From assembly GCA_947565985.1 (NCBI GenBank), contig CANOID010000011.1, forward strand, positions 1 to 45,992: a stretch of 45,992 bases of DNA, given 5' to 3'. This DNA comes from an uncultured Lachnoclostridium sp. GTDB lineage: Bacteria; Bacillota; Clostridia; Lachnospirales; Lachnospiraceae. The first letter of the stretch is position 1; each line of letters begins with the position of its first letter. Shown here in pieces: positions 4,032 through 7,692 of the stretch. Below the pieces are notes generated by a model. It did no database searches and was not told the origin of the DNA. It saw nothing but the letters and a program-made list of their open reading frames with translations. The position numbers and the translations under genes are program-made.

Positions 4032-5861
4032 TTATTTGTTTTTATTTTTTTTAGTATTTTTGCCTTTTACTATAACTTTACAGAATTTTATACTTTGTGT
4101 TCTGTTACTTGTTACAGCTATATAAGCGGTTCCTGCTTTCTTTGCATGAATGTATCCAGCTTCGTTAACTTCTACAATAGACTCATCTGATGAAACATAT
4201 ATATAATCTATATATGGCATTTTGTCAGAGGAATATTTGGGCAAAAGCCTATAATAATCACCATTCTTTAAAGTAACTTTTTCTTTATTTAGTGAAAGTT
4301 CTGGTACATAATTAAGGTCGTCATCATAACCAATAATGTGTATTACACATGATGTCTTAAGACCATTTGGGGTAGTTGCTGTAATTGTGGCATCTCCCTT
4401 TTTTAATGTGGCAAATTCAGTGTTTCCATCCTCTCCATTAACTACTATCTTTACAACACTTTCATCACTGCTTCTATAAGTTACATCTGGTAATTCGGCA
4501 TCGAATGGAATTGTATATACAGGCAGAACAGGAATCGTATCATATGTATAGTAATAAAACTCTTTCTGTGCAAATGAAATTTTAGTTGCCTTGACAATCT
4601 TTTTTTCATCAATCCATTTGGCATATAATACTATATCTTTATTTATGTTCTCGCCTTCGTTTACATAAACCTCACTTTTTTTGCCATTATTATTTATTTT
4701 AGAATACCATCCTTTAAATTTATATCCTTTTTTTACAGGAGGCTCTGGTAATATAATACCAGTATTACTGTTGCTAGTATATATATCTTCTTTATATACC
4801 TTTCCATCAGACATATATGTTATTTTGTGTTCAACAGGTTCAAGTGAGTTTATATTTTCATCTATCCATGTCACTCTGTCAGTAATCCACTGCTTTAAGC
4901 GAGTGACTTCACTTTCAAATGTTCTGCTTTCAGAATCAACTTCTGTAGAATCAACTTCTATACCTTCTACTGCTATAGATACATTTGACCCAAAGATAGA
5001 CCATATCCCACCATATATCTCATTTACATTGTAATTTGCTTTTTGTGAGTAATTTAACTCTGTTACATATTGGTCAATCTTTCCTCCATCCTTGCAGGCA
5101 TAAAGAAGTTTTTCTTTAAATGCAGGCCATCTTGCAATAAGTTTATTTACAAATGTTTTGTCCTGCATAAGCCTACCAAACCATGTTTCAGATGTCTTGT
5201 TAAAACCTTCAGTATTTGTATCAGTATCTCCCCATGCAACATAGTCAAAGTCCCAGAGAGGTCCCCAGAACAACTTTCCATTTCTTTCTTTATACAGATA
5301 AGTACTTGAAGAACCATATGCATCACCATTGCTTGATATTTCCTGCACCCAGTAATAATCAATGGCAGCATCTATATCCATATATTCACTATAAGAAATT
5401 CCTTCTTTATCCTTAAAATCTTCACCATATATCGCATTTTCTGTTTTTTGCATATATTGTGAGATGTAATTATACTGTGCTTCATTAAAATAGTCATCAA
5501 AACTTGGACTTTCTATAACAAAGCGGTTTCCTTTCTCTGTAGAAAATATCTGACCTTGTTCATCATTTTCCGTATAAGGTGACATACCAAGAAGATATCC
5601 TCCTGTAATCAGAGGTTCACTTGTAGCATTTTTAGAAGTTTCATCGGCTTCCAAGTCGTCAATATTAACACGACTGCTGCCTACGCGTACCTGTTCACAT
5701 AAGTAATAACTTCCCAAATACTGGTTATTTAATATCAAATCAACAAATACACACTGTGGTGTATATTTCATCCCCATTTCATCTCCAAGCCAAAAAGTCA
5801 GCTTATTGCGCAGCATTGATGCATCATAGTAATTAGCCAGAAGAATCCAGTGTTTGTTTTT
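4032..5861 (-). CDS. CotH kinase family protein, exon 2 (C-terminal part)
   Basis: The distal part of a secreted CotH-kinase-like protein, 609 codons plus stop, read in frame from the upstream exon if the 991-bp insert is removed. It opens with KNKHWILLANYYD, the direct continuation of the FGMG that ends exon 1. The rest of the CotH domain follows, with LRNKL, a YYWVQEISSNGDAYG segment and WGPLWDFDY, the part that matches the kinase active region. After it come an InlB/Listeria-Bacteroides-type repeat (YKFKGWYSK...YAKW) and two Ig-like BIG2-type repeats (SSDESVV, SSDESIV), which suggest a surface or matrix location. Unspliced, an ATG at 5906 inside the insert could start a leaderless product that would stay cytoplasmic. 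Known CotH proteins phosphorylate secreted or spore-coat proteins; the target here is unknown. Confidence 0.85.
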   Translation of the reverse strand, partial: KNKHWILLANYYDASMLRNKLTFWLGDEMGMKYTPQCVFVDLILNNQYLGSYYLCEQVRVGSSRVNIDDLEADETSKNATSEPLITGGYLLGMSPYTENDEQGQIFSTEKGNRFVIESPSFDDYFNEAQYNYISQYMQKTENAIYGEDFKDKEGISYSEYMDIDAAIDYYWVQEISSNGDAYGSSSTYLYKERNGKLFWGPLWDFDYVAWGDTDTNTEGFNKTSETWFGRLMQDKTFVNKLIARWPAFKEKLLYACKDGGKIDQYVTELNYSQKANYNVNEIYGGIWSIFGSNVSIAVEGIEVDSTEVDSESRTFESEVTRLKQWITDRVTWIDENINSLEPVEHKITYMSDGKVYKEDIYTSNSNTGIILPEPPVKKGYKFKGWYSKINNNGKKSEVYVNEGENINKDIVLYAKWIDEKKIVKATKISFAQKEFYYYTYDTIPVLPVYTIPFDAELPDVTYRSSDESVVKIVVNGEDGNTEFATLKKGDATITATTPNGLKTSCVIHIIGYDDDLNYVPELSLNKEKVTLKNGDYYRLLPKYSSDKMPYIDYIYVSSDESIVEVNEAGYIHAKKAGTAYIAVTSNRTQSIKFCKVIVKGKNTKKNKNK

Positions 5862-5915
5862 ACCGCTACGATAAATATATATAAATTTGATATAATCTAT
5901 AAACATTTATACTGT

Positions 5916-5934
5916 GATGTTCTCACGAAACATC
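5916..5934 (-). repeat. right-end hairpin of the IStron-like element
   Basis: A perfect 6-bp stem GATGTT/AACATC with a 7-nt loop TCGTGAG overlaps the stop of the tnpB remnant, about 55 nt from the right junction. Subterminal hairpins like this are the sites bound by Y1 transposases in IS200/IS605 elements. Confidence 0.55.
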
Positions 5935-6231
5935 TTCCTGTTTCAATGAGTCCGTTTTTGCTCCAGCCAAAGCCAGCACTACTCACGTTTGATATAACTC
6001 TCCACAGGCTTAAATTCCCCAGTAGCAATAGGTACATATCAGTACTGTCTTGTCAATGATGTTATACTGATCCATAATTTGCTGAATGCAAACGTAATGC
6101 TCTGAACATTTTACATACGAAAAGACTAATTCGTGAAACCAGCAATATTCAATTGCTGTTATTATATCAAAGCTAAATTGTACTGTCAAGACAAAAAAAT
6201 TAATTTTGATATATGATATGGCAAAGTTCAC
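5923..6231 (-). pseudogene. remnant of tnpB C-terminus (IS605 OrfB family)
   Basis: One reading frame holds 73 unrecognised codons up to a TAA at 6012-6010. It then continues ACGELYQT, a TGA at 5985-5983, and VVLALAGAKTDSLKQEDVS with a final TGA at 5925-5923. The ACGE plus S-x-KQE pattern is typical of the very C terminus of TnpB/OrfB proteins. The catalytic RuvC and zinc-finger parts are absent. In related elements this stretch also encodes the omega-RNA scaffold, which could explain why the tail survives while the protein is lost (inference). The 5' boundary is arbitrary. Confidence 0.55.
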
Positions 6232-6360
6232 TTCAACAAATTTACCTATGCTTACTAATTCTATAGTATGTTATCCATTCTGATTTCAGTATACTATTAT
6301 ATCAAAAAAGATTAGATTTATTAAGTTTATATATATTTATCTCATTCACACCAGAACGCA

Positions 6361-6852
6361 ACTTCTGATGCAGTCTTTCCGTTACCGGTAGACCTCTGAC
6401 ACTTTCATGCCAGCGTAGACTATATCTTCATCTGTATCATTTCACATACAGAGCCACATTTTTCTTCCGCCATTCGCTTGCGGTTTTACTCTCACTCCAT
6501 GAGATAGTCGTTGGAGGTCTTCCATATTTATTTTCATAAACTTAGGACTGTCCCTGCTAAACACCCATTATTACAGCACTTAGGACGAACGTTTCCAGTG
6601 TGTCACGCTTTGCCTTTCACTGTCACTGATTCGCTTTTGTTTCACCTTATGCTATCTGTACTGTTTTTTCCGCTTTCGCACCACTCAGCTTATCCTTTCG
6701 GATTACTGTTTCGGTCGTACAGCTTTAGGGATTAAAAGCATTTAACGTGGGGTCTGCACCGTTCACACGGTACAGAGGGTATTCTGTTCAATATATCTAT
6801 TTTCTGTATATATTTATACAGATTTTTCTATATTTGTAACAACAGTTTTGTT
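6361..6852 (-). ncRNA. group I intron (IA-like) catalytic core
   Basis: Read on the minus strand, AACGACTATC (6514-6504) matches from memory the R region of the phage T4 td intron. GAAGATATAGTCT (6429-6417) matches its S region. GACTAT (6509-6504) and ATAGTC (6423-6418) pair to form P7. Right after S come a CTGGCA/TGTCAG hairpin (P9-like) and CCG-GTAA-CGG with a GNRA tetraloop. The 5' exon ends GGGT, as in td, and ACCC at 6780-6777 could pair with it as an internal guide. The 3' splice site should lie at the far end of the element near 5862. The P and Q strands were not assigned. Confidence 0.82.
6804..6821 (-). repeat. perfect 7-bp hairpin near left end of the element
   Basis: CTGTATA/TATACAG with a 4-nt AATA loop lies about 30 nt inside the left junction. 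It may be a transposase recognition hairpin or part of the intron's P2 region. Confidence 0.5.
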
Positions 6853-7692
6853 ACCCATTCCAAACAAATCTGTACTTTTAGCAAGTTTAAACTTATAAGG
6901 CTTTTTAGTTGAATACCACGTTGAATTTCCTCTGCCTCTTAAATAGTCAAGGTCATATGTACCTGATTCAAATTTTTTGTCAGAATATTCAGACTTATAT
7001 CCATCTGGTACATTAATTGACACTTTGCCATAACATTCTGAATTGTGTGACTGGTCACCATTCATTTCTGCAATTGAACCTTCTGATTCATCAATATCAA
7101 AGCTTACCATAGGAATACTGCTTTTCATGAAAAATATACTCCGCATCAATAAGGTTACATCACCCTGTGTTTCTGTAACCACTTTAAATGAAACTGTATG
7201 TTTTCCTGTAATTTTCTTCTCTTTAATATCCTCACACACATTTTTTACATAGTTCCAGTAATCGTTACGTTTCTGGCAATTAAGTTTTAATGAAATAAAA
7301 GGTTCTTTATCATTGTCCAGATAAAACTGTAGTGTAGTTTTTGTTTTCTTGGCAGCAAGACCATCTACAACAATATGTGTTGCTTCTTTTGCACCAAAAT
7401 CGATTTCATCCTTAAATGTAAAAATACTCTCAGCAATATTTGTACTGCTTCCCTTTATAAGCACACCATTGCCCTTTTCATGTGTTGTCATGCTTACCTT
7501 AGAATTTGAAACTACAAATTTCTGCTCACCTAACAACTTAATTATGTCCTGCTTATCAGTGCTTTCATTTGTTTCTTTTACACTTTCATCAGCCTTTTCG
7601 GTTGCAGCCGCATATATTGGCTGATATCCTGCAAATCCTGATACTATTATAAGAGAAAACACAAGTATAAGTTTTTTAAAATATTTGCTCAT
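6814..7692 (-). CDS. CotH kinase family protein, exon 1 (signal peptide and N-terminal part)
   Basis: The N-terminal part of the interrupted cotH. The start at 7692 (MSKYFKKLILVFSL) has a GAAAGGAG site 8-9 nt upstream and opens a clear signal peptide ending near YAAA. The longer open frame to 7887 has no such support. Coding matches the family to LRGRGNSTW...KKPYKFKL...TDLFGMG, whose last codon is GGT at 6855-6853. Beyond that point 12 codons of intron sequence are read before a TAA at 6816-6814. Unspliced mRNA thus gives a secreted stub of 292 residues. Joined to exon 2 the product would be 889 residues. The gene is divergent from a DUF445 gene. Confidence 0.82.
   Translation of the reverse strand: MSKYFKKLILVFSLIIVSGFAGYQPIYAAATEKADESVKETNESTDKQDIIKLLGEQKFVVSNSKVSMTTHEKGNGVLIKGSSTNIAESIFTFKDEIDFGAKEATHIVVDGLAAKKTKTTLQFYLDNDKEPFISLKLNCQKRNDYWNYVKNVCEDIKEKKITGKHTVSFKVVTETQGDVTLLMRSIFFMKSSIPMVSFDIDESEGSIAEMNGDQSHNSECYGKVSINVPDGYKSEYSDKKFESGTYDLDYLRGRGNSTWYSTKKPYKFKLAKSTDLFGMGNKTVVTNIEKSV
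6836..6854 (-). repeat. left-end hairpin of the IStron-like element
   Basis: GTAACAA/TTGTTAC is a perfect 7-bp stem with a 5-nt AACTG loop, and begins within the last bases of the 5' exon. It could act as the left-end Y1 transposase hairpin, as the intron P1 extension, or both. Confidence 0.55.

What the first reader, a model, noticed from the sequence alone, without database searches (positions are those of the whole stretch)
5862..6852. IStron-like element (group I intron + IS605 remnant) inserted in a secreted CotH gene
Seen: a 991-bp block splits a CotH frame at FGMG|KNKHW. Its first half carries a group IA intron core (P7 pairing GACTAT/ATAGTC, P9-like hairpin, GNRA loop). Its second half ends in a TnpB-type tail and a terminal hairpin. 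Known: clostridial IStrons combine a group I intron with IS605 genes and splice themselves from the host mRNA. Inference: this is a small non-autonomous IStron, and splicing may keep an exported protein functional.
Basis: partly seen in the sequence, partly recalled or inferred. Interest (0 to 1): 0.85.

Follow-up and report, generated by a model that had tools for sequence, protein, structure and literature searches.

The report
ORF-less IStron with guide RNA
A transposon that is also an intron of the self-splicing kind sits inside a secreted-protein gene of a bacterium; it has lost its protein genes but kept the guide RNA of a DNA-cutting enzyme, with a promoter-like sequence of its own in front.

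Summary
A 991-bp insert (best read as 5863-6853, minus strand) interrupts a CotH gene exactly at GMG|KNKHW; 17 of 17 CotH loci checked in 16 other genomes of the genus are uninterrupted there. The 5' half is a group I intron: Rfam 40.6 bits (E 1.3e-8, below the curated cut-off); 21 of 39 tested pairs change on both sides across 10 relatives, P7 included. tnpA and tnpB are scraps; between them lie about 115 bp of foreign sequence with a 12-of-12 extended -10 promoter match pointing into the guide RNA. A sister IStron with intact TnpB lies elsewhere in the genome, inside an apiosidase-like gene. Best reading: a non-autonomous IStron that removes itself from cotH mRNA and makes a guide RNA for TnpB supplied in trans. 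Splicing and guide activity are inferred, not shown. ORF-less IStrons are known; a kept guide RNA with its own promoter is the new variant.

The parts
6854..7692 (-). cotH 5' exon; starts MSKYFKKLILVFSLIIVSGFAGYQPIYAAA (signal peptide by eye), ends FGMG
   Evidence: relatives continue straight into KNKHW
5863..6853 (-). ORF-less IS607-type IStron, 991 bp, begins TAACAAAAC, ends TATTTATCGTAGCGG
6777..6780 (-). ACCC, candidate internal guide sequence pairing with the GGG of the 5' exon; 9 of 9 introns tested carry ACCC or GCCC starting 27-74 nt after GGG (the GGG itself was used to recognise the 5' ends)
6396..6638 (-). group I intron match RF00028, 40.6 bits
   Evidence: gathering cut-off 50; covariation
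6504..6509 (-). P7 5' strand GACTAT
   Evidence: GATCAT in L045
6418..6423 (-). P7 3' strand ATAGTC
   Evidence: ATGATC in L045, a compensatory change
6204..6264 (-). tnpA scraps (ATA where the sister has its ATG; internal deletion)
6089..6203 (-). foreign filler, in part 80-82% alike to intergenic stretches of two same-genus genomes
6161..6189 (-). promoter-like TTGACA-17-TATAAT with TGn, 12 of 12, the only such site in the window
6062..6088 (-). tnpB C-terminal scrap HSANYGSV*
5935..6008 (-). RAGATH-18 core of the IS607 TnpB guide (omega/re) RNA, RF03064, 68.9 bits
5871..5910 (-). AU-rich terminal stem of the element
5843..5862 (-). predicted guide: first 20 nt of the 3' exon
   Evidence: inference from the IS607 reRNA layout (PMC11061315 sections 5-6; PMC10711439 passages)
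4032..5862 (-). cotH 3' exon; CotH kinase domain PF08757 (profile 35-321 of 322), then List_Bact_rpt and Big_2

Best explanation
The block is an IS607-type (group B) IStron that has lost tnpA and tnpB. Shown: its anatomy, its group I intron core, its intact TnpB guide-RNA scaffold, its exact boundaries, uninterrupted cotH loci in the genus, and a TnpB-bearing sister in the genome. Inferred: (1) in the cotH transcript the group I ribozyme cuts after GGG and joins it to the base after CGG, so cotH is still made; (2) the promoter in the filler transcribes the guide RNA independently of cotH; (3) the guide RNA, whose guide is the 3' exon, loads TnpB made by the sister copy and cuts empty cotH alleles next to GGG, favouring retention of the insert; (4) any movement needs TnpA in trans. 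The confidence given is for the element's identity and step 1; I put steps 2-3 together at about 0.35.
For: RAGATH-18 68.9 bits; RF00028 40.6 bits, E 1.3e-8; 21 of 39 pairs change on both sides, 0 of 500 shuffles reach the covariation score. Sister at C31: intron 100% over 533 nt, 392-aa TnpB that keeps, by eye on the alignment, the RuvC residues of solved ISFba1 TnpB 8iaz; it splits Pfam Apiosidase at profile 210 | 219. In 6 of 6 elements whose two ends I could read, the host frames on the two sides are in phase. Empty cotH sites in 17 of 17 loci checked. Promoter 12 of 12; shuffled elements reach 12 of 12 in 2 of 2000 and with TG in 0 of 2000. 56 of 56 predicted guide-RNA pairs are standard in the window copy; against C31, 3 pairs differ on both sides and all 3 stay paired. 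The group B IStron BcISt1 splices in vivo after G (PMC4227781, section 18).
Against: No RNA data. The Rfam intron score is below the curated cut-off. No second copy of this deletion form: no other match in its genome or in 27 genus mates spans it, so the genes may have been lost in situ and the small form may never have moved. A promoter match is not evidence of transcription; the number of promoter-like sites in the region is as expected by chance (12 against 10.6), and 76 of 2000 shuffles reach 11 of 12. Use of TnpB in trans is untested; the 5' flank (AATGGG) is neither of the TAMs reported for RAGATH-18 TnpBs (AGGAG, GAGGG), though ISXfa1 TnpB uses GGG (PMC10711439, passage). The sister's own TnpA is truncated to 88 aa.
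Confidence: 0.8

Rival explanations
1. Dead insertion: the intron no longer splices and cotH is a split pseudogene.
For: Both transposase genes are gone; only DNA was seen; no transcript evidence.
Against: Intron core intact and identical to the sister's over 533 nt; both exons open over their full length (279 codons left, about 610 right) and 71-76% identical to the two nearest relatives; boundaries exact.
Confidence: 0.15
2. The guide RNA is a passive leftover of the right end and the promoter a by-product of filler; only the intron matters.
For: Single copy of this form; the filler resembles intergenic sequence elsewhere in the genus. Of 9 other TnpB-less RAGATH-18 mini-elements in the genome, 7 show no site of 10 of 12 or better in the 300 nt (fewer in L017, at a contig end) before the RNA, L015's 11 of 12 lies in its host flank and L020 has 10 of 12: orphan guide RNAs here do not as a rule carry such a promoter.
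Against: The ORF-less IStrons L045, L080, L087 show no RAGATH-18, so it is not needed for the intron's survival; 56 of 56 guide-RNA pairs are intact in the window copy; the TnpB-less copy at C115 also has an 11 of 12 promoter with TG, while the TnpB-bearing C31 copy has at best 10 of 12 there.
Confidence: 0.4
3. Assembly artefact joining parts of two IStron copies.
For: 533 identical nt shared with C31 in a 185-contig draft genome could be collapsed or misjoined.
Against: Each contig carries both halves of the right host gene (cotH on C11; Apiosidase on C31), and the filler and the 3' part differ from C31 (3' part 88%). The exact intron identity could still be partly an assembly effect.
Confidence: 0.05

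Closest known systems
Group B IStrons with IS607 (BcISt1, CbISt1-4 and others; Tourasse 2014, PMC4227781; read: abstract, sections 14, 15, 16, 18 and part 1 of 2 of section 20)
   Same: group I intron first, insertion after a GG-ending site, T as first base and CGG as last bases, AU-rich 3' stem, IS607-type genes in the sister
   Different: no ORF; foreign filler with a promoter; guide RNA kept
ORF-less BcISt1 of emetic B. cereus (same paper)
   Same: intron kept, both ORFs lost
   Different: by the paper's text those keep only the sequence forming the inverted-repeat stem; this one keeps the whole RAGATH-18 RNA
Clostridial IS607 IStron with intron versus guide-RNA conflict (Zedaveinyte 2024, Science eadm8189; seen only as a citation; its content is recalled)
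   Same: one stretch of RNA serves splicing and guide production
   Different: here a separate promoter could uncouple the two, and TnpB is absent in cis
RAGATH-18-guided IS607 TnpB (PMC11061315; abstract, sections 5 and 6 read, word search)
   Same: RAGATH-18 scaffold at the right end
   Different: no adjacent TnpB; the paper finds 64% of RAGATH-18 RNAs beside TnpB, and 'IStron' and 'splic' do not occur in its main text
MITEtron in dsrA of Thiomargarita (PMC4853749, passages only)
   Same: transposase-less element fused to a group I intron
   Different: no guide RNA mentioned in the passages seen

Membership tests
Group B (IS607-type) IStron | inserted after a GG-ending site and ending CGG, no target duplication | tested here: met
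   GGAATGGG|T...TAGCGG|TAAAAAC; uninterrupted relatives
Group B (IS607-type) IStron | group I intron at the 5' end with P7 and P9-type hairpin | tested here: met
   subclass IA2 not separately tested
Group B (IS607-type) IStron | long AU-rich stem at the 3' end | tested here: met
   columns 208-247
Group B (IS607-type) IStron | IS607 ORF A / ORF B | tested here: not met
   only scraps in this copy; in the sister ORF B is intact and ORF A truncated. PMC4227781 accepts ORF-less copies as IStrons, so this lowers completeness, not the family
Group B (IS607-type) IStron | splicing in vivo | not testable with these tools
   no RNA data
Group I catalytic intron (RF00028) | score at or above Rfam's gathering cut-off | tested here: inconclusive
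   40.6 against 50, E 1.3e-8; some relatives found by model R1 pass it: L098 51.5, L109 65.6, L121 67.1, L106 74.6, the other 16 of 20 given did not
RAGATH-18 / IS607 TnpB guide RNA | RF03064 above gathering cut-off | tested here: met
   68.9 against 44.9
RAGATH-18 / IS607 TnpB guide RNA | TnpB gene directly upstream | tested here: not met
   TnpB only in trans
Group A (IS200/IS605) IStron such as CdISt1 | inserted after a T-rich pentanucleotide, ending TCAG | tested here: not met
   GGG and CGG instead (criteria from PMC4227781 section 15)

The most novel reading that the evidence does not exclude
A guide-only IStron: an intron-bearing transposon that dropped its protein genes, took in a strong promoter to make its guide RNA apart from the spliced host mRNA, and so uses another element's TnpB to hold its site. 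It would be one of a hidden set of orphan guide RNAs: of 15 RAGATH-18 matches in this draft genome (13 over the cut-off), 11 have no TnpB match, intact or decayed, beside them (one, C62, lies 204 bases from a contig end). Against the general form: most of the other orphans show no comparable promoter.
Probability: 0.35. Interest if true: 0.75.

Novelty: new variant of a known kind. Interest (0 to 1): 0.55.

Why it matters
In IStrons, splicing and guide-RNA production draw on the same transcript, so an excised intron may cost a guide RNA (conflict recalled from Zedaveinyte 2024, not read). An element with an internal promoter in front of the guide RNA gives a natural test of how that conflict can be resolved, and of whether TnpB acts for non-autonomous relatives in trans.

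Tried and rejected
IS605 affiliation: rejected on target site, end sequence and RAGATH-18. Sister copies of the deletion form: none in the own genome or 27 genus mates. Filler: sought in 299 family genomes (7 with matches, the own genome included; beyond it only G002 scores above 41 bits) and not identified; it resembles promoter-bearing intergenic stretches in G002 and G003 (L024, L023). Order-wide search with intron model R1: 21 of 344 genomes, 52 matches listed, the own two included; 30 loci were fetched, 20 of them given to Rfam, and none of the 20 has RAGATH-18 at its cut-off. These loci hold only about 1.5 kb of flank, so full elements can be missed. A group I reading of the L074-type mini-elements was considered and dropped: no Rfam intron hit up to E 5, fold z -0.97. 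Literature searches listed no paper on an IStron with guide RNA but no TnpB; the Science 2024 paper is not held, so absence from print is not claimed.

Rows dropped before counts: of 19 CotH matches in other genomes the two partial ones on G016:C49 were not checked. For the in-phase count, ends of L080 and L084 were chosen by eye from the CGG motif; intron loci with only one readable end or none (L078, L079, L081, L082, L083, L085, L086, the viral ones and L088) were left out. Alignment A1 used 10 of 13 cores printed; L013 (same as window), L079 and L083 (long inserts) were left out, and the divergent pattern matches L047, L048, L049, L088 were not considered; L048, which also has a GGGGTAAC candidate end, was not in the 9. 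In one search the HU start was sought on one strand of each locus only.

Full report
What is there. On the minus strand a CotH gene runs from 7692 to 4032. It is interrupted by 991 bp. The 3' exon carries the CotH kinase domain (PF08757, 131.5 bits, profile 35-321 of 322). The 5' exon begins with a signal peptide (by eye).

Empty sites. Part of the 3' exon protein was searched in 28 genomes of the genus: 17 matched, the own genome included. In 17 of 17 loci checked, from the 16 others, the 5' exon match ends at GM and the 3' exon match begins after a gap of one or two codons, with no insert. The nearest two read FGMGKNKHW. Two further partial matches (G016:C49) were not checked. Many of these loci are much less alike over the exons (down to 36-38%), so some may be paralogues. 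The insert is specific to this genome in the set examined.

The intron. Rfam over 5700-7000 gives RF00028 at 6638-6396, 40.6 bits, E 1.3e-8, below the curated cut-off of 50. A 21-base pattern from the core found 12 stretches in genome contigs and 3 in viral contigs. Ten cores aligned at 82% mean column identity. With a structure that includes P7, 97.4% of cells pair, 21 of 39 pairs change on both sides, and 0 of 500 shuffles reach the covariation score; sliding partners by 1-3 columns drops pairing to 37-57%. P7 is GACTAT/ATAGTC in nine and GATCAT/ATGATC in L045. The structure was partly derived from these sequences, which favours it. The window intron folds at z -4.95. In 9 of 9 introns tested, ACCC or GCCC starts 27-74 nt after the GGG that precedes the intron, a plausible guide for the 5' splice site; the GGG itself served to recognise those ends.

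The IS part. The own genome holds a fuller sister at C31 (L013). Its intron matches the window copy at 100% over 533 nt; it encodes an 88-aa TnpA start (MerR-like, 22.2 bits against a cut-off of 28.2) and a 392-aa TnpB closest among solved structures to 8iaz (E 1.6e-68). It lies inside an apiosidase-like gene whose two halves match Pfam Apiosidase at 1-210 and 219-319 of 320. In the window copy tnpA survives as scraps with ATA for ATG, and tnpB as its last eight codons. The IS part is IS607-type (group B of PMC4227781), not IS605. Other TnpA matches without stops stand at C69, C2 and C28 (216, 218 and 208 aa of open frame).

The guide RNA. RAGATH-18 matches at 6008-5935 with 68.9 bits. PMC11061315 (abstract, sections 5 and 6) shows RAGATH-18 RNAs guiding IS607 TnpB, with the variable sequence past the conserved 3' flank as guide; PMC10711439 (passages) gives GG crossover for IS607. 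On a six-sequence alignment 56 of 56 predicted pairs are standard in the window copy, 53 of 56 in C31; against C31, 3 pairs differ on both sides and 5 on one side with pairing kept in both. The structure was predicted on an alignment that includes the window copy.

The promoter. About 115 bp of filler, not in C31, lies between the tnpA and tnpB scraps. It contains TTGACA-17-TATAAT with TGn, the only 12 of 12 site in the 46-kb window; shuffles of the element give 12 of 12 in 2 of 2000, with TG in 0 of 2000, and 11 of 12 or better in 76 of 2000. A start near 6154 would run through the guide RNA into the 3' exon. The overall number of promoter-like sites nearby is as expected by chance (12 against 10.6). 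Part of the filler is 80-82% alike to intergenic stretches of G003 and G002; TTGAC in one and TTGGC in the other stand at the place of the -35. Among other TnpB-less RAGATH-18 copies, C115 has an 11 of 12 site with TG, but 7 of 9 mini-elements have none of 10 of 12 or better.

Relatives. Six elements had two ends I could read: window, C31, L045 (response regulator with LytTR domain, Lachnospiraceae MAG), L080, L087, L084. In 6 of 6 the host frames on the two sides are in phase. L045, L080 and L087 show neither TnpB nor RAGATH-18. The other intron loci with RAGATH-18 at the cut-off (L013, L049, L078, L079, L081) each have a TnpB match. Among the intron loci examined, intron + RAGATH-18 without TnpB was not seen; the window is the only case.

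Assessment. That this is an ORF-less IS607-type IStron is well supported. That it splices is likely by homology (shown for group B BcISt1 by RT-PCR in PMC4227781, section 18) but not shown here. That its guide RNA is made and used in trans is a testable inference.

Noticed in passing
L015-L020, L022, L074, L075 (own genome C94, C63, C62, C47, C37, C8, C43, C57, C76): Stand-alone RAGATH-18 mini-elements without TnpB (312-323 and 449-450 bp in the 7 whose two ends were read). 8 of 9 end 3-11 nt before an ATG that opens a frame of at least 91 codons (UvrB-, FabZ-, QueA-, TrpA- and HU-like by eye among them); L020's ATG opens only 44. The 7 left flanks read end in Shine-Dalgarno-like GAAGG, AGGGG, TGGAG or GGAGG.
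   Followed up: partly
L074:790-850 against L150, L151, L152, L156, L161, L164: HU-like gene: 6 of 16 relative loci scanned (one strand each) matched the start pattern, and all 6 have GAGGAGG 8-9 nt before the ATG; in the own genome a 450-bp mini-element separates AAGGAGG from the ATG. How the gene is then translated is open: removal from RNA, or AGCAGGA at the element's end as a substitute.
   Followed up: partly
L014 (own genome C115) 878-1143: Orphan RAGATH-18 with an 11 of 12 promoter (TG) upstream and its end changed from CGG to CGA, between a GGDEF-like gene and a UvrC-like gene (names by eye).
   Followed up: partly
L079 from 1976; L078 from 1999: Full IStrons whose 3' flank looks like dnaE (Veillonellaceae MAG) and a cobyrinate synthase (Tepidibacter MAG), by eye; the contigs begin inside the intron, so 5' flanks are missing.
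   Followed up: no
L084 (Ruminococcus sp. MAG): An intron of this family with TGGG before it and AACGG at its end but no IS part, host frames in phase on the two sides.
   Followed up: partly
own genome C69 (L073 1492-3390): IS607 with TnpA (216 aa) and TnpB (389 aa), no match to intron model R1, also ending 7 nt before an ATG; a possible source of TnpA in trans.
   Followed up: partly
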